A DNA stretch of 64,000 nt, taken from positions 1-64,000 of the forward strand of contig NZ_MNLH01000004.1 of assembly GCF_002896555.1 (NCBI RefSeq), in the 5' to 3' direction. This stretch comes from Gardnerella coleohominis. Lineage in GTDB: Bacteria > Actinomycetota > Actinomycetes > Actinomycetales > Bifidobacteriaceae. Below are positions 2,222 to 37,223 of this stretch, piece after piece (positions within the stretch are counted from its first letter, which is position 1; every line of letters begins with the position of its first letter). The notes below the pieces were generated by a model. The model saw only the letters and a list, made by a program, of their open reading frames with translations. It was not told the DNA's origin and made no database searches. The position numbers were made by a program, and so were the translations under genes.

Positions 2222-3739
2222 TTATTCTTTCGTGATAGTATCGCGTAATTTATGTGCTTCTTCGCAAGGGTTTTCTGCGAGCATAAGAGCAGATACCACG
2301 CATAAGCCATTTACGGAAGTATTCTTAATAGGGAATACAGTGTTTTCGTTAACGCCGCCGATTCCGAGCGCGCTAATGCCGAATTCTTTAGCTTGTTTAG
2401 CAATCTTTTCTAGACCTTCAATGCCTAAAGCAGGAGCAGCGTCTGGTTTAGTGGCAGTAGGCCAAATTGGACCTATTCCAATAACATCAGGCAGTGCTAC
2501 ATTTTCTTTAGCGCATTCTTCATAAACGTAATTTAACTGGTCTAAGTTTTCGATAGAAAGTCCAACCATCCATTCTGCAGGAATAGATTTACGCGCTTCA
2601 ATATAAGGAGTATCTGTTTGTCCAACATGTAAGTTGAATCCTAAGTTTTTAGCGCATTCTAAACGATCATTAACGAAAATAGGTACGTCTCCGCAACCGT
2701 TAGCAAGCATTTTTTCACGTAAACTTTGAGCTTTATTATTAAAAGTTTCGCTATCTGCATATTTGTCGCGCAATTGGACTACGCTCGCACCGCCTTTAAC
2801 GCAATCAACTGCAATATCTTCTTCAGCTCTATCGCTCATCTTTGGGTCTGTTATGAAATATAAAGACCAGTCAACGGGGTCGAGTTCGAATTCAATATTT
2901 GTTAGTTGTATCATTTCGTCTGCGCTTAAATCCATAAGCGCATCCATCCATAATGTTCTAAATGATCCTGGGGAAGTTGAACGTTGTGCTGCCCAGGTTC
3001 CTGCTGCGGCAGCATGTACGTGTGCGGCAACTGTTGCAGCAAAAGGCTTATTTCGATTTGCTCCAACGTATGCTGCTACTAATGCACCAAGAGAGCAGCC
3101 AGTGCCGACTACTTTTGTCATTATCTCGTTTCCGCCTGAAACGCGAGCTGAGCATCCGTGGCCATAAATAGCGTCTTTTTCGCCAGAAATAGCTACTACG
3201 GATCCATAAAGTTTAACTAGCTTCTTAGCTGCTGCAACTGCCGAATCAACCGAGTCTCCAGCGTCTACGCCTTTGCCTCCGCTTTCTTCTCCAGCTAAAC
3301 CTAAGATTTCTGAAGCGTTTGCACGGATTACAGCAGGTTGATTTTTAACAATTTCTCGCGCGTATTCGGTGCGAGGTGGTAATCCGCCAACTGCAACAGG
3401 GTCAAGAACCCACGGTGTATGCGCTTTTACAGCTCCGCGTATTGCAGCATCCATAGATTCTTTGTCTACTGGTCTGTATGTTCCAAGATTTATTAATACT
3501 CCAGAAGCGATTTGAGCAAATACTTCAGCTTCGTTGGCGTCTATAACCATTGCTGGAGATGCTCCTGCTGCAAGAAGAACATTTGCTGTTATTTCTTGAA
3601 CAACATTATTTGTTACACAGTGTGTTAGAGGATTCTTTGCTCGCAAAGTTTCAATACATTCGCGCACGTCTTGAACGAATTGCTTGCGACGAGCATTGTT
3701 TGAGAATTCACTATTTTGATGGCACGACATAGTAGTCAT
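2222..3739 (-). CDS. thiM: Bifunctional hydroxyethylthiazole kinase ThiM / thiamine-phosphate synthase ThiE fusion
   Basis: About 505 residues. The N-terminal half is ThiM (HCVTNNVVQEITAN, VLDPVAVGGLPPR, VVGTGCSLGA), which phosphorylates the thiazole alcohol. The C-terminal half, from about residue 300, is ThiE (VQLRDKYAD, FVNDRLECA, HVGQTD, GIGPIWPTATK, LGIGGVNE), which joins pyrimidine and thiazole into thiamine phosphate. The open frame extends to 3805, but that stretch is the TPP riboswitch, so I start at the ATG at 3739, directly after the switch and 5-6 nt from AAGGG. It is the first gene of the thi operon. Its product would use the pyrimidine made by the downstream ThiD-TenA protein. 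Confidence 0.93.
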   Translation of the reverse strand: MTTMSCHQNSEFSNNARRKQFVQDVRECIETLRAKNPLTHCVTNNVVQEITANVLLAAGASPAMVIDANEAEVFAQIASGVLINLGTYRPVDKESMDAAIRGAVKAHTPWVLDPVAVGGLPPRTEYAREIVKNQPAVIRANASEILGLAGEESGGKGVDAGDSVDSAVAAAKKLVKLYGSVVAISGEKDAIYGHGCSARVSGGNEIMTKVVGTGCSLGALVAAYVGANRNKPFAATVAAHVHAAAAGTWAAQRSTSPGSFRTLWMDALMDLSADEMIQLTNIEFELDPVDWSLYFITDPKMSDRAEEDIAVDCVKGGASVVQLRDKYADSETFNNKAQSLREKMLANGCGDVPIFVNDRLECAKNLGFNLHVGQTDTPYIEARKSIPAEWMVGLSIENLDQLNYVYEECAKENVALPDVIGIGPIWPTATKPDAAPALGIEGLEKIAKQAKEFGISALGIGGVNENTVFPIKNTSVNGLCVVSALMLAENPCEEAHKLRDTITKE

Positions 3740-3817
3740 GATTTTCCCTTCGCTAGTACTAACTAGATCAGGTTCAACGGGTATAATCTCAGCGCTTTTG
3801 CGCACCCCGAACCCATA
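3740..3817 (-). promoter_or_regulatory. TPP riboswitch (THI element)
   Basis: Read on the minus strand, the region has the diagnostic THI blocks in order: ggggtgcg, a short hairpin, gctgagat, acccgttgaacctgatct, gttagtac and agcgaaggga. The closing helix P1 can form between ttcg (3811-3808) and cgaa (3752-3749). The Shine-Dalgarno GAAGGG (3751-3746) overlaps the P1 3' strand, and the start codon follows 5-6 nt later. This geometry suggests translational control: TPP binding would stabilise P1 and hide the ribosome-binding site. Function follows from the family; the mode of action is inferred from spacing. Confidence 0.93.
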
Positions 3818-3923
3818 TTTGACTATATATGCGCGTTATGACGTTATTTGGATTTTATTTTATTAAGCTACGTATGGCATATATATAACGCTATTTTGTT
3901 CGTAACTTTTCTCGCTATACGCG

Positions 3924-31204: not shown

Positions 31205-33040
31205 GTGCCACACACTCACTATAACGCGCATGCCATGCATCGCAGTGCTAAAAAAACTAAAAATGCTGCAAATAATAAAAACAGCATGAATAATAAAAGC
31301 AGCATGAATAATAAAACAAATAACGCTAATAAAAATAGTAGCGTTAAAAATAGTGATACAAAATTAAGTAACTCTTACAATTCTCGTTCAACTAGTAATT
31401 CTAATGAGCAGCGTAAGTCGAAAAGAGTCTCTAAAAAACGCAATCCTTTTGAATACCAGCCAAGTCATAAGAATCACGGTTCTAATCACGGTTCCAATAG
31501 CGAGTTCAGTCATGGCTCCAATCACGAGTTTAATTCGCGCAGAGAGCGCAATCGCAAGGCGGATAAAGCTCGTCAAAAGTCTCGCGAGAAGGCTTTGCAA
31601 TACGAAGAAATGGCTATTCGCGACGCACAGCAAGATTTCGCTGAAAAATATGACAGTTCTTCAGCTAAGCAAAATTCAATAGTAATACCTGATTCTGCAA
31701 TCGAATCTCGTGAAAACTATTCTGAAAATGTCACTTTTTCGCAACTTGGCGTTCCAAATCCTATTGTGGAAGTATTGCGTGCAGATGGCAAAACTACGGC
31801 TTTCCCAATTCAGCAAGCCACGTTACCGGATTCCCTAAAAGGCGCGAATATTCTAGGACGCGGTCGTACAGGAAGTGGTAAAACATTAGCATTTTCTATT
31901 CCACTTGTTGCGCGTTTAGCTGAGAATTTTGTTGATCTAATCAATTCTGGTAAAAAGCATAAATCGCGCGAATCCAATGATATTCCTGCACCTCGTGCAA
32001 TGATTCTGGCTCCAACTCGTGAGCTTGTCCATCAAATTGATGACGTAATCGCTCCACTTGCTGCAGCCTATGGCATGAAAACAGTAACTGTTTATGGTGG
32101 CGTGCGATATCAACGTCAAATATCCCAACTTAAGCAAGGTGCACAGATTGTTCTCGCCTGTCCAGGTCGTTTGGAAGATTTAATACGACAAGGTGCGCTT
32201 ACGCTTGAAAAAGTAATGGTTAGCGTGCTCGACGAAGCAGACGAAATGGCAGATATGGGATTCTTACCAGCTGTAACAAGACTTTTAGAGCAAGTTAAAC
32301 CAGATGGCCAGCGCATGCTGTTTTCTGCAACTCTCGATAAGCAAGTTAGCGCAATAGTTAATCAATTCTTGCCAAATGCTGTTATTCATGCTGTGGATGA
32401 TGCTGATAGTCAAGTAGACACTATGACGCATCATATTTTCGCTGTGTCTGCAGGAGACAAGTACGAAGTTCTACGAAAGCTAGCATCAGGCAAAAAGCGT
32501 TCTATATTCTTCACTCGCACTAAATATCAGGCGAAGAATATGGCGAAAAAGTTTGTACAGGAAGGTATTCCTGCAGTTGATTTGCAAGGTAATCTTTCCC
32601 AAAGTCAGCGCGATCGCCATTTGGAAGTGTTTTCTGAAGGCTTAGTGCGCGTGCTCGTCGCTACAGATGTTGCTGCGCGAGGTATAGATATTAGCGACGT
32701 TGCATTAGTTGTGCAAACTGAGCCTCCTGAGGATCCTAAATCCTTCTTGCATCGTTCTGGTCGTACCGCTCGCGCAGGTGAAGAAGGCGACGTAGTAACT
32801 CTTGTGCTTCCTAATCAAAAGCGCGCTGCTCATATGATGCTTCGCAGAGCTGGAATTCACGCAAAGGCCGAGGATGTGAATTCGGGTTCTATGATTATTG
32901 ATGAACTTGTTGGCGATTATGCTGAGCTGCAAGAAGGTTGGACTATGCCGGAACCTGAGCAGCATAAGCGGAAAGGTCGCGGAAGAAGTCGTGGAAGATG
33001 GAGTAGGAGGAGTCGAGGCAAAGCCGTCGACAAGCACTGA
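31205..33040 (+). CDS. DEAD-box ATP-dependent RNA helicase
   Basis: 611 residues. Motifs run in order: Q motif (FPIQQATLP), I (GRGRTGSGKT), Ia (APTRELVHQ), GG, II (VLDEADEMADMGF), III (FSATL), IV-V (RVLVATDVAARGIDI) and VI (HRSGRTARAGE). It should remodel RNA, for example in ribosome assembly or decay. The N-terminal 130 residues are an Asn/Ser/Lys/His repeat region (KNSMNNKSSMNNK; SNHGSNSEFSHGSNHEF), and the C-terminus is Arg/Gly-rich (GRGRSRGRWSRRSRGK), a usual RNA-binding tail. It begins with GTG, GAAAGG upstream. The gap before it is nearly pure aaataaa repeats. Confidence 0.93.
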   Translation: MPHTHYNAHAMHRSAKKTKNAANNKNSMNNKSSMNNKTNNANKNSSVKNSDTKLSNSYNSRSTSNSNEQRKSKRVSKKRNPFEYQPSHKNHGSNHGSNSEFSHGSNHEFNSRRERNRKADKARQKSREKALQYEEMAIRDAQQDFAEKYDSSSAKQNSIVIPDSAIESRENYSENVTFSQLGVPNPIVEVLRADGKTTAFPIQQATLPDSLKGANILGRGRTGSGKTLAFSIPLVARLAENFVDLINSGKKHKSRESNDIPAPRAMILAPTRELVHQIDDVIAPLAAAYGMKTVTVYGGVRYQRQISQLKQGAQIVLACPGRLEDLIRQGALTLEKVMVSVLDEADEMADMGFLPAVTRLLEQVKPDGQRMLFSATLDKQVSAIVNQFLPNAVIHAVDDADSQVDTMTHHIFAVSAGDKYEVLRKLASGKKRSIFFTRTKYQAKNMAKKFVQEGIPAVDLQGNLSQSQRDRHLEVFSEGLVRVLVATDVAARGIDISDVALVVQTEPPEDPKSFLHRSGRTARAGEEGDVVTLVLPNQKRAAHMMLRRAGIHAKAEDVNSGSMIIDELVGDYAELQEGWTMPEPEQHKRKGRGRSRGRWSRRSRGKAVDKH

Positions 33041-33063
33041 TTGTTATCTCTGCTATTCCTGTT

Positions 33064-33160
33064 CTTGGTTTTGTGGACTTATTGGGCGTGTTGGTAAACA
33101 AAATCGGGGAAGTGTTCTTGGTTTTGTTTACTTAGGTACCAGATAAGTACACAAAGTTGG
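33064..33160. repeat. Second cluster of palindromic repeats (family A), inverted
   Basis: Read on the minus strand, this stretch repeats the units found at 259-489. A full palindrome (arms at 33094-33103 and 33122-33131, followed by cttag) keeps the same ccaag and cttcccc loop words and matches unit B at about nine positions in ten. It is flanked by a half unit with the gtccac-type arm (33064-33081) and a half unit reading aagtacacaaag (33145-33155). Orientation is opposite to the first cluster. Confidence 0.85.
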
Positions 33161-33167
33161 GGGAAGC

Positions 33168-33230
33168 GCGCTTGCTGGAAAGTCCACTGGACTTTCCACG
33201 TTGTGCAAGCGCTCTCGCATCGGTTTGCTT
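33168..33230. repeat. Nested-hairpin element, copy 1
   Basis: An outer 8-bp stem (gcgcttgc 33168-33175 with gcaagcgc 33205-33212) encloses a perfect 10-bp inner stem (tggaaagtcc 33176-33185 with ggactttcca 33189-33198) closed by the loop ACT. Positions 33208-33230 are identical to 33338-33360. The element has no coding potential. Confidence 0.8.
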
Positions 33231-33255
33231 GAAGCGGAAGCCTTTTTGGTCTGTG

Positions 33256-33292
33256 GATTACGCTTCTTTAGGGTAGTAAAGAAAGCGTAATC
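33256..33292. repeat. Hairpin between the two nested-hairpin elements
   Basis: gattacgctt (33256-33265) pairs with aagcgtaatc (33283-33292), extended inward by cttta with taaag. The loop is six bases (33271-33276), with one bulged base at 33282. No U-run follows, so it is not an obvious terminator. Confidence 0.7.
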
Positions 33293-33296
33293 GGGC

Positions 33297-33399
33297 GCGC
33301 TGACGCTGAAAGCGCACTGTGCTTTCAGCATTGAGTCAGCGCTCTCGCATCGGTTTGCTTTTTCACGCTACGCTTTGAGTGAAAAAGCAAGACGATGCG
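33297..33399. repeat. Nested-hairpin element, copy 2, running into a long hairpin
   Basis: The outer stem is gcgctgac (33297-33304) with gtcagcgc (33335-33342). The inner stem runs 33305-33315 with 33319-33329 (11 bp, one G-U) and again has loop ACT. The 3' flank 33338-33360 equals that of copy 1. From 33346 to 33399 a further hairpin of about 21 bp (19 paired) forms: cgcatcg at the base, then ttgctttttcac with gtgaaaaagcaa, and cgatgcg. The whole field ends about 55 bp before tRNA-Glu. Confidence 0.8.
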
Positions 33400-33455
33400 A
33401 CACGCCGGTTTGCTCTTGCGCAATCAAAGTGTTAATATCATATGGTTTGGTTAAA

Positions 33456-33527
33456 GCCCCCTTCGTCTAACGGTTAGGACACCAGACTTTCAATCTGACA
33501 ACAAGAGTTCGACTCTCTTAGGGGGTA
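33456..33527 (+). tRNA. tRNA-Glu (anticodon TTC)
   Basis: A 72-nt cloverleaf. The acceptor gcccccT pairs with agggggT (one G-U), D arm gtctaacggttaggac, anticodon loop CTTTCAA with TTC at the anticodon, T arm with gttcgac, discriminator A. CCA is not encoded. A terminator follows at once. Confidence 0.95.
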
Positions 33528-33535
33528 CAAATTCT

Positions 33536-33567
33536 ACGCCGCTCGTTTTGGGCGGCGTTTTTTTTTA
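33536..33567 (+). terminator. Rho-independent terminator of tRNA-Glu
   Basis: The stem cgccgc (33537-33542) with gcggcg (33552-33557), plus an A-T closing pair, is followed by nine or more T residues. It lies 9 bp after the tRNA. Confidence 0.92.
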
Positions 33568-33673
33568 TTTTCTATCTGTTATTTAAAACTAGTCATCTGG
33601 CCTTAGTCGGGCATACTATACATATCTACAATCGGAATTAGAATGTTACAGAAAGGTTTGTAAGGAGGCTTCG

Positions 33674-34711
33674 ATGGCTGCAGATAATAATCAATATGGA
33701 AGTTCTAATAGTAACGAACAGTATCAAAATTATCAAAACTCTAATTATAATCAGGTAAATCAGAATAATCAGAATAATCAGTTTAGTCAGCAGCAATATT
33801 CGCAGTCTCAATATTCACAATCTCAATACTCGCAGCCTCAGAATACACGTTCTCAGAGCGCACAGCAGCAAAACGCGCAGTCTCAATATTCACAGTCTCA
33901 ATACTCGCAGCCTCAGCAAAGCAATAATTATTACGCTCAGAATACTCAGCAATACGGTAATCCATCTCAACAGTATGGCGCTCAAAATACACAATATGGC
34001 AATCAAGGCAATCAAGGTATGCCATATGGGCGCCCGTATCAACAGTACGGCAATCCGAATATGCAATATGCGCGTCCACCTTACGGAATGAATGGTAGGA
34101 ATGGCGCTTATCGACCGGGCAATCCGTATCGCCGTCGCGGTAGCCTTCAAGACGAGAAATATAGAAGATTCTGGAATACTCCTTCATATGCGCTTCCGAA
34201 ATTTAAATATGATGATCCTGAAGCGGATAAAAATCTCAACAATGACGATGATTCTGTGAATATGTTCGCTTTCTGGAGCATTATCCTAGCGTTCTTTATT
34301 CCTCTTGTAGGTTTTATTTTAGGTATTATTGGATTAGTTCAGATTTCTAAAAACCACGAACGCGGTAAAGGTAGAGCCATTGCTGCAATTATCGTCAGCA
34401 TTGTAATGTCATTTGTGTATGTTTTTGGCATTTTGTTCTTCGTAAACACTATTAATTCGAAAATAGATGATTCGATAAATAGTACATATAATTATTCGCG
34501 TTCATACGACGATAATTCCTATAATTCTGATAACGACGATAATTCGTACAATTCAGATAACGATGACAATTCGTATAACTCTGATAACGACGATAATTCG
34601 TACAATTCGGATAATGACGATAATTCCTATAATTCGGATAACGATGACAATTCGTACAATTCAGATAATTCGTATGACGATAATTCGTACAATTCGGATA
34701 ATGGTGACTAA
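33674..34711 (+). CDS. DUF4190-type membrane protein with repeat tails on both sides
   Basis: 345 residues. The N-terminal 165 are Gln/Asn/Tyr/Ser-rich with repeated QYSQS and QYGN words. The middle (about 198-265) is a DUF4190 unit: two membrane helices (FAFWSIILAFFIPLVGFILG and AIAAIIVSIVMSFVYVFGI) around the loop ISKNHERGKGRA. The C-terminal 70 residues repeat DDNSYNSDN about seven times from a 27-bp DNA unit. Repeat copies differ mostly at third codon positions. The role is unknown; the layout suggests an envelope protein with flexible low-complexity ends. Start: ATG after AAGGAGG. A tRNA-Glu terminator lies upstream. Confidence 0.85.
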   Translation: MAADNNQYGSSNSNEQYQNYQNSNYNQVNQNNQNNQFSQQQYSQSQYSQSQYSQPQNTRSQSAQQQNAQSQYSQSQYSQPQQSNNYYAQNTQQYGNPSQQYGAQNTQYGNQGNQGMPYGRPYQQYGNPNMQYARPPYGMNGRNGAYRPGNPYRRRGSLQDEKYRRFWNTPSYALPKFKYDDPEADKNLNNDDDSVNMFAFWSIILAFFIPLVGFILGIIGLVQISKNHERGKGRAIAAIIVSIVMSFVYVFGILFFVNTINSKIDDSINSTYNYSRSYDDNSYNSDNDDNSYNSDNDDNSYNSDNDDNSYNSDNDDNSYNSDNDDNSYNSDNSYDDNSYNSDNGD

Positions 34712-34845
34712 TTTTATAAATCTGTCGGTGTTTCGCAGAATTGGATTTGTGATTTTAGGTTAGAAGTTGGCTTAATTATGCCGATTTTCAACACGCCGGA
34801 AATCCCTTAGTTATCAAGGCAACACGCCGATTGTTATTTTATAAC

Positions 34846-34873
34846 TTGCATTTAAGGCTATTTCCTGTAAGAT
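34846..34873 (+). promoter_or_regulatory. Promoter for the tRNA-Asp/tRNA-Phe unit
   Basis: TTGCAT (34846-34851) and TAAGAT (34868-34873) are separated by 16 bp and lie about 31 bp upstream of tRNA-Asp. Upstream, the decamer caacacgccg occurs twice, 29 bp apart (about 34791-34800 and 34820-34829). The 34712-34845 stretch otherwise shows no gene. Confidence 0.6.
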
Positions 34874-34904
34874 AGTGACTCGGCCGTTCAAGAGAACGTG
34901 CCAC

Positions 34905-34978
34905 GGCCCCGTAGCTCAGTTGGTTAGAGCGCCGCCCTGTCACGGCGGAGGTCACCGGTTCAAGTCCGGCCGGGGTCG
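34905..34978 (+). tRNA. tRNA-Asp (anticodon GTC)
   Basis: 74 nt. The acceptor ggccccg pairs with cggggtc, D arm agctcagttggttagagc, anticodon stem ccgcc/ggcgg with loop CTGTCAC, T arm gttcaag, discriminator G. CCA is not encoded. Confidence 0.96.
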
Positions 34979-34987
34979 CGATGGTGG

Positions 34988-35013
34988 AAGCCCGGTTAGT
35001 CCGGGTTTTTTAT
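34988..35013 (+). terminator. Terminator-like hairpin between tRNA-Asp and tRNA-Phe
   Basis: cccgg (34991-34995) pairs with ccggg (35001-35005), extended by weak pairs, and is followed by six T residues. tRNA-Phe begins 8 bp later, so it may be partly read through or tRNA-Phe may have its own start. Confidence 0.7.
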
Positions 35014-35020
35014 TCATCTT

Positions 35021-35093
35021 GGCTCTGTAGCTCAGTTGGTAGAGCGAACGACTGAAAATCGTTAGGTCAGCGGATCGATCCCGCTCGGAGCCA
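35021..35093 (+). tRNA. tRNA-Phe (anticodon GAA)
   Basis: 73 nt. The acceptor ggctctg pairs with cggagcc, D arm agctcagttggtagagc, anticodon loop CTGAAAA, T arm with gatcgatc in place of the common gttcgatt, discriminator A. CCA is not encoded. Confidence 0.95.
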
Positions 35094-35108
35094 CAAGTAA
35101 ATAAACAA

Positions 35109-35142
35109 AAAACGCGCGGCAGTTTTTGTCGCGCGTTTCTTT
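35109..35142. terminator. Bidirectional terminator between tRNA-Phe and galE
   Basis: aaacgcgcg (35110-35118) and cgcgcgttt (35130-35138) form a perfect 9-bp stem flanked by an A run on the left and T-rich sequence on the right. It can stop both the tRNA transcript and the convergent galE transcript. Confidence 0.85.
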
Positions 35143-35152
35143 ATTTCATAAG

Positions 35153-36163
35153 CTAGTCAGATTGCTTCCAAGATTCAACATCAATATGATGTTTTGGATT
35201 TGCTTGCCAAGCTTTCCATGCTGATTCAACAATATCCTTAACATTGTATTGTGCATGCCAGCCCATTTCCTCATTAATACGAGTTGGATTGCCAATTAAT
35301 TGAGGAGGATCTCCAGCGCGGCGAGGTAATACAGCTTCTTTGAACGGTATCTTTGTGACGCGTCGAACTTCTTCAACGATTTCCCTAACTGACGTACCAG
35401 TGCCAGTTCCAACGTTAAAAGCGTCATACTTACGCTCGTCGCGATCCAAATAGTTCAAAGCTGCAATATGCGCGTCAGCCAAATCTGAGACGTGAATATA
35501 ATCGCGAATGCAAGTTCCGTCTGGAGTTGGGTAGTCGTCGCCGAAAATAGCAGGTGCTTTGCCGCGCTGCAAGCGTTCTAAGAGCATAGGAATAAGATTT
35601 AGTACAGCAGGGTCTTCTAACTCAACTGGACCGCATCCAGCCACGTTAAAGTAGCGCAATGCGCAGAAGCGAATCCCATAAGGCTTTTCGCAAGCGCGAG
35701 CCATCCATTCTCCAATAAGTTTGGTCTGGCCGTATGGGTTGATAGGAAGCATAGGAGAAACATCTTCAGGCACCACTTCTACTGGTGGTTCTCCGTAAGT
35801 TGCTGCAGAAGATGAAAATACGAGCTTCCTAGCTTCGCTATGGCGCATTCCTTCAAGAACATTAAGCATTCCGTTAAGATTTTGCTCATAGTACCAAAGT
35901 GGCTTTTCCATTGATTCGCCAACTTGTTTCCTAGCGGCAAAATGTATAACTGCATCTACATGCTCATTTTTCATAATTTCTGCAAGACGTTCGCTTGCAC
36001 CTGGAGCTGCAATGTCCATTCCGTAAAGACGAGCGCCTTCAATACGCGTTGGTTTGCCATAGCTTAAATCGTCAACGACGACGACTTCTTGCTTGGCTTG
36101 ATGAAGTGCGTGTACGACATGTGCGCCGATGTATCCGCATCCTCCTGTAACGAGAACAGTCAT
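35153..36163 (-). CDS. galE: UDP-glucose 4-epimerase
   Basis: 336 residues. The N-terminal MTVLVTGGCGYIGAH is the NAD-binding GxxGxxG motif of extended short-chain dehydrogenases; SSSAATYG and YGQTK supply the catalytic Ser, Tyr and Lys, and ALRYFNVAGC is typical of GalE. It interconverts UDP-glucose and UDP-galactose in the Leloir pathway and feeds envelope polysaccharides. An upstream in-frame extension to 36289 is unlike the family; ATG 36163 has AGAAAGG in front. No other galactose genes are beside it. Confidence 0.94.
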   Translation of the reverse strand: MTVLVTGGCGYIGAHVVHALHQAKQEVVVVDDLSYGKPTRIEGARLYGMDIAAPGASERLAEIMKNEHVDAVIHFAARKQVGESMEKPLWYYEQNLNGMLNVLEGMRHSEARKLVFSSSAATYGEPPVEVVPEDVSPMLPINPYGQTKLIGEWMARACEKPYGIRFCALRYFNVAGCGPVELEDPAVLNLIPMLLERLQRGKAPAIFGDDYPTPDGTCIRDYIHVSDLADAHIAALNYLDRDERKYDAFNVGTGTGTSVREIVEEVRRVTKIPFKEAVLPRRAGDPPQLIGNPTRINEEMGWHAQYNVKDIVESAWKAWQANPKHHIDVESWKQSD

Positions 36164-36350
36164 GATAGACCTTTCTAGCATTGATCGATAGAAATTAATT
36201 GGAACAAAAAATGTTCGTTTTTGCTCACATATGTTATGTTTTGCTCTTTTAGTATACATCATAAAGGCAAAATATTTTACATATTTCACAATCTACAATA
36301 AAATACAAAAATGGCCAGTCTAAGTCGCATGAATACGTGTTGGGATAATT

Positions 36351-37223
36351 ATGAATAACGAAAATACACAATCTGAAAATAATAGCATGATAGCTAAGGC
36401 TCGTGCCGTTTTATCTTTTGTTAGACGATCAGCTAGATTGGATTCTCGTTTACAGCGCGCTAAAGATGCGTATTCTTCCAAGTATTTATTGCAAGTTACA
36501 TCTTCAGAAGGATCATTGCGCTTAAGCGATGATATTCGTGTTAATACTGAGTGGATTTCTAGAAATTGGGGGAATACAAATCCTCTTATTGTAGAAATTG
36601 GATCAGGCCAAGGCGAAAATATAGTTGCGGCTGCTGCTAAAAATCCTGATATAAATTTTTTGGCTTTAGAAGTTTATGATCCAGGTGTAGCGCATACTAT
36701 GCTTCTTGCTTCTAAATGCGTTAATGCAGATTGCGATTCTTCTGAATCTGAACAAGACTCAGATAAAGGCTTGAAAAATCTGAGAATTGCTCAAGTTAAT
36801 GCCCCAGATTTTCTTAAAGCTTGCGATTCTAATGTACTTCGCGAAGTTTGGACTTTCTTCCCAGATCCTTGGCCAAAAATGCGCCATCATAAGCGTCGCA
36901 TTGTGCAATCGGAGCTAGCTAAAGATATTCATAATGCTTTAGTAGAAGGCGGATTGTGGAGAATTGCAACAGACATAGAAGATTATGCTTTACATGTGCA
37001 TGAAGTAATGGATAATCGTTCAGATTTTAAAAATATAGGAAATACTTCTGTTAGCTTACCAATTGAACACGTTGGAAAAGGCAATGCTGAGGATGCTAAT
37101 TTGCTTCCGCATGCTGATTTTTGCGAGTCAAATAGATTTGATGGTCGTGTTCTTACGAATTTTGAGCGCAAAGGATTGGAAGCTGGGCGTAAGATTCACG
37201 ATATTACGTACATGAGTATTTAA
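36351..37223 (+). CDS. trmB: tRNA (guanine-N7-)-methyltransferase
   Basis: 290 residues. The SAM-binding motif is [12 protein letters not shown] (about 80-91), and the family signature [19 protein letters not shown] lies near 165-183. It methylates G46 in the variable loop of tRNAs. A short Ser/Glu-rich insert ([13 protein letters not shown], about 125-137) interrupts the fold. The final codons and stop are duplicated just downstream: a 20-bp stretch at 37208-37227 recurs at 37229-37248. Start ATG 36351 has GGGA nearby as a modest ribosome site. rsmD follows on the same strand. Confidence 0.93.

What the first reader, a model, noticed from the sequence alone, without database searches (positions are those of the whole stretch)
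33168..33360. Two nested-hairpin elements with different stems, the same fold and an identical 3' flank
Copy 1 (33168-33230) and copy 2 (33297-33360) both have an 8-bp outer stem, a 10-11-bp inner stem and the loop ACT. Outer stems gcgcttgc and gcgctgac, and the inner stems, differ between copies yet each is self-complementary. The 23 bp that follow each (33208-33230, 33338-33360) are identical, 130 bp apart. Variable but paired stems plus a constant flank suggest a structured RNA or the target of a recombinase or transposase rather than a random repeat. No described family fits that I know.
Basis: seen in the sequence. Interest (0 to 1): 0.72.

Follow-up and report, generated by a model that had tools for sequence, protein, structure and literature searches.

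The report
Genome-wide hairpin repeats in Gardnerella
The two hairpins are one whole and one broken copy of a short DNA repeat that Gardnerella bacteria carry in many copies, mostly between genes; the letters of its stems change from copy to copy but still pair, so it looks like a small mobile element kept for its folded shape, with no enzyme known to move it.

Summary
The window is from Gardnerella. Copy 2 (33297-33400) is an intact element of two composite hairpins: H2 (8-bp outer stem, 5-nt bulge, 11-bp inner stem, loop ACT) and H3 (8 bp, 2x2 internal loop, 12 bp, 12-nt loop). The "constant 23-bp flank" is 5 nt of the H2 outer stem, a short spacer and the left arm of H3. Copy 1 is H2 plus that orphan arm. 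A covariance model gives 31-60 matches in each of 7 Gardnerella genomes and 0-5 weak ones in each of 54 others of the GTDB genus. On the model-fitted alignment 37 of 39 pairs show two-sided changes. Copies are mostly intergenic, in both orientations, present or absent at orthologous sites; the window's own is missing at tRNA-Glu in 6 of 6 relatives. The 3' end is abrupt, the 5' end ragged. G.T and A.C mispairs are about equal (32, 27), so nothing marks one strand as RNA. No Y1 transposase in 7 of 7 genomes. Best reading: a Gardnerella-restricted family of non-autonomous palindromic repeats, REP/MITE-like but outside those families, probably spread as folded DNA by an unknown enzyme.

The parts
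33297..33342 (+). H2 of the intact copy: outer 8 bp (33297-33304 with 33335-33342), inner 11 bp, loop ACT, 5-nt 3' bulge ATTGA
   Evidence: model R1 match 33296-33400, 92.2 bits
33345..33400 (+). H3 of the intact copy: arms 33345-33366 and 33379-33400 with one 2x2 internal loop and 12 nt between the arms
   Evidence: inverted repeat I2, fold, model match
33168..33212 (+). H2 of the broken copy 1: outer 8 bp, inner 10 bp, loop ACT, 6-nt 3' bulge
   Evidence: model match 33167-33237, 42 bits
   Evidence: compared by eye with the complete H3 of L053
33256..33292 (+). H1, the hairpin before copy 2 (GATTACGC...GCGTAATC); a hairpin of the same kind precedes the copy of L064 next to tRNA-Lys
   Evidence: folds; tRNA-Lys
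33400..33407 (+). ACACGCCG, the motif upstream of the tRNA-Glu promoter; the element ends against it
   Evidence: 3 in the window, 0.73 expected; present in 6 of 6 relatives
33456..33527 (+). tRNA-Glu(TTC) gene downstream of the element
   Evidence: Rfam tRNA, ARAGORN on L066
33060..33155 (+). separate repeat of another kind (GTAAACAAAATC/GGTTTTGTTTAC hairpins) that abuts, and may have truncated, the 5' side of copy 1
   Evidence: D2, I1; similar arrays seen in L019, L025-L028

Best explanation
The feature is one intact and one broken copy of a Gardnerella-restricted family of short (about 100-180 bp), non-autonomous, mostly intergenic palindromic repeats. Shown: a common architecture (modular 5' part, often with a hairpin H1, then H2, then H3), many copies per genome, compensatory change in nearly every stem pair, an abrupt 3' end at the base of H3, a ragged 5' end, and presence or absence at orthologous sites. 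Inferred: copies are gained by transposition or recombination that uses the folded single DNA strand, since selection appears to act on pairing as such and not on an RNA. An unidentified protein would recognise the H2-H3 fold and act from the precise 3' end. Once inserted, most copies probably have no gene-specific role; they act as hairpins between genes and as homology for tandem duplication and nested insertion.
For: Copies: 56, 34, 31, 43, 60, 36 and 43 matches at E<=0.001 in 7 of 7 Gardnerella genomes (G000, G009, G014, G022, G031, G044, G046); partial copies are included and a few may be opposite-strand cross-matches; of the 150 strongest that the call lists (79.7 bits or more, full length) 33, 14, 9, 16, 35, 17 and 26 fall in these genomes. 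In each of 54 other genomes of the GTDB genus 0-5 weak matches, 38 with none. An exact pattern over the right half of H2 hit 30 stretches (31 matches) of genome contigs, all titled Gardnerella or Bifidobacteriaceae bacterium NR021/NR047. Check without choosing on the left arm: of these 31 matches, 1 dropped for an end or N and 4 as duplicates, 25 of 26 have >=10 of 11 inner pairs and 25 of 26 have >=5 of 6 outer pairs. Covariation on the model-fitted alignment: 89.7% of cells paired, 37 of 39 pairs with two-sided change, 675 two-sided cells against 88-121 when partners are slid; on the earlier MAFFT alignment 86.3%, 28 of 39, 198 against 21-43. DNA-like: 75 distinct copies give 2531 Watson-Crick cells, 32 G.T, 27 A.C and 300 other, 270 of these in the six columns of the TC/TC mismatches; 18 distinct tRNAs give 357, 27 and 0. 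Mobility: L065 filled versus L040 empty; tRNA-Glu element absent in 6 of 6 relatives and tRNA-Lys states differing between genomes; rpoC and tuf sites filled in some genomes and not in others. Boundaries: mean flank identity is 0.25-0.29 at once downstream but 0.49, then about 0.3, upstream (72 flank pairs). Tandem array of four copies, period 179 (L120).
Against: No enzyme identified: Y1_Tnp absent in 7 of 7 genomes; no other transposase family was searched. No target-site duplication could be read by eye at the filled/empty pairs. Equal G.T and A.C could also mean unselected decay of copies. Rows of A1 were found by descriptors that ask for H2 pairing and were picked by me, mostly for having H3; A2 was fitted to the model; so the covariation counts lean towards the structure. 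On A1 the number of further pair types does not exceed the shuffles (48 against 46.1, 152 of 500 as high), and RNAalifold alone gives 22 pairs and not the H2 outer stem. H3 folding of the unselected set is modest: median z -1.84, 12 of 26 below -2. Among the closest pairs of copies one-sided changes dominate (39 against 3 two-sided in the two lowest bins), which is ordinary compensatory evolution and no sign of a special copying mechanism. RNA energy rules favour the bottom strand (51 of 73 more stable), so an RNA role is not excluded.
Confidence: 0.6

Rival explanations
1. It is a cis-acting RNA: the hairpins are transcribed at gene ends and act as mRNA 3'-end stabilisers or transcription attenuators, as proposed for REP and other stem-loop repeats.
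For: 47 of 54 sites overlap no ORF of 90 aa or more and the upstream gene is co-oriented in 35 of 54; copies stand soon after terminator-like hairpins at tuf and rpoC in several genomes (by eye); at serS/tRNA-Ser in G000 the model match (L140:14574-14675) takes in the tRNA terminator hairpin as its H3 (by eye); stable folds; RNA rules favour the bottom strand in 51 of 73 copies.
Against: Orientation is mixed: co/co 20, co/anti 15, anti/anti 10, anti/co 9 of 54, and the co-oriented excess includes type C copies. No G.U excess over A.C. No consistent T run after H3 (by eye). Sites are empty in some relatives.
Confidence: 0.2
2. It is a protein-binding DNA palindrome, for instance for gyrase, a nucleoid protein or a recombinase, and the covariation reflects cruciform binding rather than mobility.
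For: Near-invariant AAG..C ACT G..CTT core in the H2 inner stem while neighbouring pairs vary; type C copies lie in repeated att-like stretches, in L058 around a serine recombinase.
Against: No binding protein known; outer stems and H3 are free in sequence, which suits shape more than base recognition; copy gain needs a separate mechanism.
Confidence: 0.12
3. Plain amplification by recombination and template switching at quasi-palindromes, without any dedicated enzyme or function; pairing is kept by intrastrand correction.
For: Nested and microhomology-like junctions (L038/L048; L053 and L056; L061; read by eye), tandem array L120.
Against: At short divergence changes are one-sided, 39 against 3, so arm-to-arm correction is not the main source of pairing; the 3' ends are precise.
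Confidence: 0.08

Closest known systems
REP / REPIN elements with RAYT (GTAG REPs)
   Same: Short intergenic palindromes in many copies, often as doublets, non-autonomous, thought to be moved by a transposase acting on them
   Different: About 100-bp core of two composite hairpins with a 5-nt one-sided bulge and no GTAG tag; no Y1_Tnp in 7 of 7 genomes
CGTC-tagged palindromic repeats (PMC3733652, passages seen)
   Same: Palindromes without a dedicated transposase; many H3 right arms here contain GTCGTC
   Different: Those carry CGTC at one end of a short palindrome (often dimers) in five phyla, Actinobacteria not among them, and the paper's text names neither Gardnerella nor Bifidobacterium; here CGTC lies inside a stem and is missing in other subtypes
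MITEs
   Same: Small, non-coding, dispersed; one copy has matching ends (GCTCGCG..CGCGAGC in L065, by eye)
   Different: No shared terminal inverted repeat seen across the family, ragged 5' ends, no parent transposon found (only Y1_Tnp was searched)
bcr1-type and BOX-type repeats (recalled)
   Same: Repeats of one or more stem-loops in Gram-positive genomes
   Different: No alignment to them was made here; relatedness untested

Membership tests
REP/REPIN (RAYT-linked) | RAYT / Y1 transposase encoded in the genome | tested here: not met
   PF01797: 0 of 1 and 0 of 6 Gardnerella genomes; the control rings in 5 of 14 named genomes
REP/REPIN (RAYT-linked) | GTAG tetranucleotide at the foot of the hairpin | tested here: not met
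   No GTAG seen at the element ends in the listings (by eye)
REP/REPIN (RAYT-linked) | many intergenic copies with paired, variable stems | tested here: met
   31-60 matches per genome; 47 of 54 sites overlap no ORF of 90 aa or more
CGTC repeats | CGTC tag at one end of a short palindrome | tested here: not met
   The element ends in H3 of about 56 nt; CGTC is internal and absent from several subtypes, the window's included (by eye)
MITE | shared terminal inverted repeats and target-site duplications | tested here: inconclusive
   Matching ends in L065 by eye; no duplication readable at L065/L040 or the tRNA sites
MITE | parent transposon with the same ends | not tested
   Only PF01797 was searched among transposases
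Rfam RNA families | match at the gathering score | tested here: not met
   Window at gathering: one TPP riboswitch and three tRNAs; the sub-threshold matches in 33160-33410 stay below gathering
structured RNA | G.U preferred over A.C in stems | tested here: not met
   32 G.T against 27 A.C in 75 copies; tRNA control 27 against 0, from a finder that favours standard pairs
intrinsic terminator | hairpin followed by a U-tract | tested here: not met
   Sequences after H3 show no consistent T run (by eye); exception: the tRNA-Ser site of G000, where a terminator hairpin stands in the H3 position

The most novel reading that the evidence does not exclude
A new class of single-strand-folded mobile repeat: a composite two-hairpin (H2-H3) substrate, distinct from REP/RAYT, moved in trans by an unidentified enzyme that reads shape rather than sequence. 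The strand it folds would be the bottom one, where the recurrent TC/TC tandem mismatches (126 of 138 tandem mismatches, at five alignment positions) become tandem G.A pairs.
Probability: 0.2. Interest if true: 0.75.

Novelty: new variant of a known kind. Interest (0 to 1): 0.45.

Why it matters
Gardnerella genomes are small, yet each of the seven searched carries many of these elements, some next to rpoC, tuf and tRNA promoters. If they move as folded DNA without a RAYT, they point to an undescribed mobilising enzyme. If they do not move now, they are still ready-made markers for strain typing and for rearrangement breakpoints. The dense covariation also makes a useful warning: compensatory change in many copies does not by itself show a functional RNA.

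Tried and rejected
Constant flank as insertion mark: rejected, it is a hairpin arm. Known RNA family: none. RAYT: absent. Helicase neighbourhood as ortholog anchor: the tRNA-Glu gene was not found beside the helicase in the six relatives' loci, so tRNA-Glu and tRNA-Lys were used instead. One-event arm-to-arm correction: not supported. Fixed role at gene ends: orientation mixed. The first tRNA control script read no structures and was repeated. Literature: in the listings (titles and starts of abstracts seen) no paper describes such a repeat in Gardnerella; of PMC3733652 I saw passages, PMC2267715 was searched for four terms without a hit, and one search gave nothing used. Statements on G.A pairing, REP, BOX, bcr1, ABC-F and gene names such as rlmCD, trmA, trmB, rpoC, tuf and serS are recalled unless a call is cited. 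The weak matches outside Gardnerella (16 of 54 genomes, best E 9.3e-8) were not examined. The first look scored only part of its candidates (150 per genome, 65), so counts may be low; on the other side opposite-strand cross-matches of one copy can inflate them (seen at low scores). Several named loci and unnamed loci are the same place held twice (for example L055 and L105); identical rows were counted once.

Full report
What is there. The two nested hairpins are at the coordinates given. Only these two places in 64 kb fit a nested-hairpin descriptor; five resampled sequences gave 0, 0, 1, 0 and 0. The identical 23 bp is explained by a third hairpin. Copy 1 has H2 and the same left arm, but no right arm follows it.

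Where it is from. An exact pattern over the right half of H2 hit 30 stretches in the species-representative collection, all titled Gardnerella or Bifidobacteriaceae bacterium NR021 or NR047; records of the window's own genome may be left out there. In a draw of 61 genomes of the GTDB genus, six others stand close to the own genome (G009, G014, G022, G031, G044, G046; helicase identity 84-90%, the rest 71% or less among those listed); these are taken as the Gardnerella group.

How many. A covariance model of 103 positions and 39 pairs built from 43 copies gives 56 matches at E<=0.001 in the own genome and 34, 31, 43, 60, 36 and 43 in the six relatives. These include partial copies and perhaps a few opposite-strand cross-matches. 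The 150 strongest listed, all full length at 79.7 bits or more, fall 33, 14, 9, 16, 35, 17 and 26 in the seven genomes. In three 20-kb stretches of the own genome 18 matches stand at 13 separate places. The 54 other genomes of the draw have 0-5 weak matches each, 38 of them none.

Structure and its evolution. H2: outer stem of 5-10 bp, 4-6-nt bulge on the 3' side (mostly YYTRA), inner stem of 10-11 bp, loop mostly ACT or ACC. H3: 8-9 bp, a 2x2 internal loop, 11-12 bp, variable loop. Of 39 pairs, 37 have two-sided changes on the model-fitted alignment; sliding the partners by 1-3 columns removes the signal. On the MAFFT alignment made before the model it is 28 of 39, again far above the slid versions; there the number of further pair types is no higher than in shuffles (152 of 500 as high), and RNAalifold predicts 22 pairs without the H2 outer stem, which is partly misaligned. 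The counts lean towards the structure because rows were found by hairpin descriptors, chosen by me, or aligned by the model. A set chosen by the right half of H2 alone still shows the left half paired in 25 of 26; its H3 energies are less striking (median z -1.84, 12 of 26 below -2).

DNA or RNA. In 75 distinct copies G.T and A.C cells are 32 and 27; tRNAs from the same loci give 27 and 0 (18 distinct, with the reservation that the tRNA finder favours standard pairs). Tandem mismatches are almost all TC opposite TC, 126 of 138, at five alignment positions in 73 copies. On the complementary strand these are GA opposite GA, which is recalled to be a stable sheared arrangement. With RNA energies the bottom strand is more stable in 51 of 73 copies; with DNA energies there is no difference, 33 against 37. 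The strand question stays open.

Sites. Of 54 copies with a called ORF on both sides, after removing duplicates and the rows of 16 short loci, 7 overlap an ORF of 90 aa or more, and neighbouring genes lie in all four orientations, 20, 15, 10 and 9. Read by eye: soon after rpoC the genomes G000, G031 and G044 have a copy (that of G044 runs into a masked stretch) and G009, G014, G022 and G046 show none in 450 bp; after tuf G000, G022, G031 and G044 have one and G009, G014 and G046 none in 560 bp; after serS and tRNA-Ser an H2-like hairpin is kept in G000, G022, G031 and G044. L065 holds a copy where the orthologous gap of L040 is empty. At tRNA-Glu the window's element is absent at that spot in 6 of 6 relatives, which all keep the ACACGCCG motif ahead of the promoter; L131 has another copy further upstream. 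At tRNA-Lys an intact copy is seen in G044 and G046, a right-end remnant in G031, a copy split by other repeats in G000 and none in G009; G014 gave no match and L136 (G022) could not be read.

Ends. The mean identity of flanks between copies is at background at once after H3 but fades slowly upstream (72 flank pairs). Upstream modules differ: at least six kinds of 5' context, several with their own hairpin H1 (by eye). Four copies stand in tandem with a 179-bp period in L120. In L038 and L048 one element lies in the H3 loop of another.

What moves it. Unknown. Y1_Tnp is absent from 7 of 7 genomes; no other enzyme family was searched genome-wide. Fifteen entries of a related kind (type C; L055 and L105 are the same place) share a longer conserved stretch. 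In L059 it follows a gene whose peptide reads like rlmCD/trmA (name recalled), and in L058 two such stretches bracket a serine recombinase (Resolvase and Recombinase domains), a DUF4097 protein and an ATPase with two ABC domains. This may be a passenger relation only.

Novelty. The kind (dispersed intergenic palindromes) is well known. This family, its two-hairpin architecture and its restriction to Gardnerella were not seen in the paper listings named under Tried and rejected. It fails two defining tests of REP/RAYT elements and is therefore not filed there, though it may work in a similar way.

Noticed in passing
L058:2300-6900, and L038, L045, L046, L048, L055 (= L105), L059, L063, L103, L106, L114, L116, L125: A conserved stretch of up to about 300 bp containing an H2-H3 copy, with GGTGGGTGCA/TGCACCCACC near its two sides in some copies; in L058 two of them bracket a serine recombinase and cargo genes; looks like the att sites of serine-recombinase islands.
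   Followed up: partly
window 33060-33155; L019, L022, L025-L028: Tandem hairpin repeats GTAAACAAAATC...GGTTTTGTTTAC with about 12-bp spacers, a second repeat family of the same genome.
   Followed up: no
window 33400-33407, 34791-34798, 34822-34829; L126-L131, L137: ACACGCCG stands ahead of tRNA promoters; 3 in the window against 0.73 expected, present at tRNA-Glu in 6 of 6 relatives.
   Followed up: partly
window 31205-37223: Gene order around tRNA-Glu differs from relatives, where a trmB-like gene (by eye) adjoins the tRNA in at least four of six loci; the repeat cluster may mark a rearrangement breakpoint.
   Followed up: partly
window 33674-34711: DUF4190 protein with a Gln/Asn-rich N-terminus and tandem DDNSYNSDN-like repeats at the C-terminus.
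   Followed up: no
window 3728-3819 (-): TPP riboswitch above the gathering score.
   Followed up: no
L120:964-1602: Four tandem copies of the type A unit, period 179 bp, upstream of a sequence that reads like a tRNA.
   Followed up: partly
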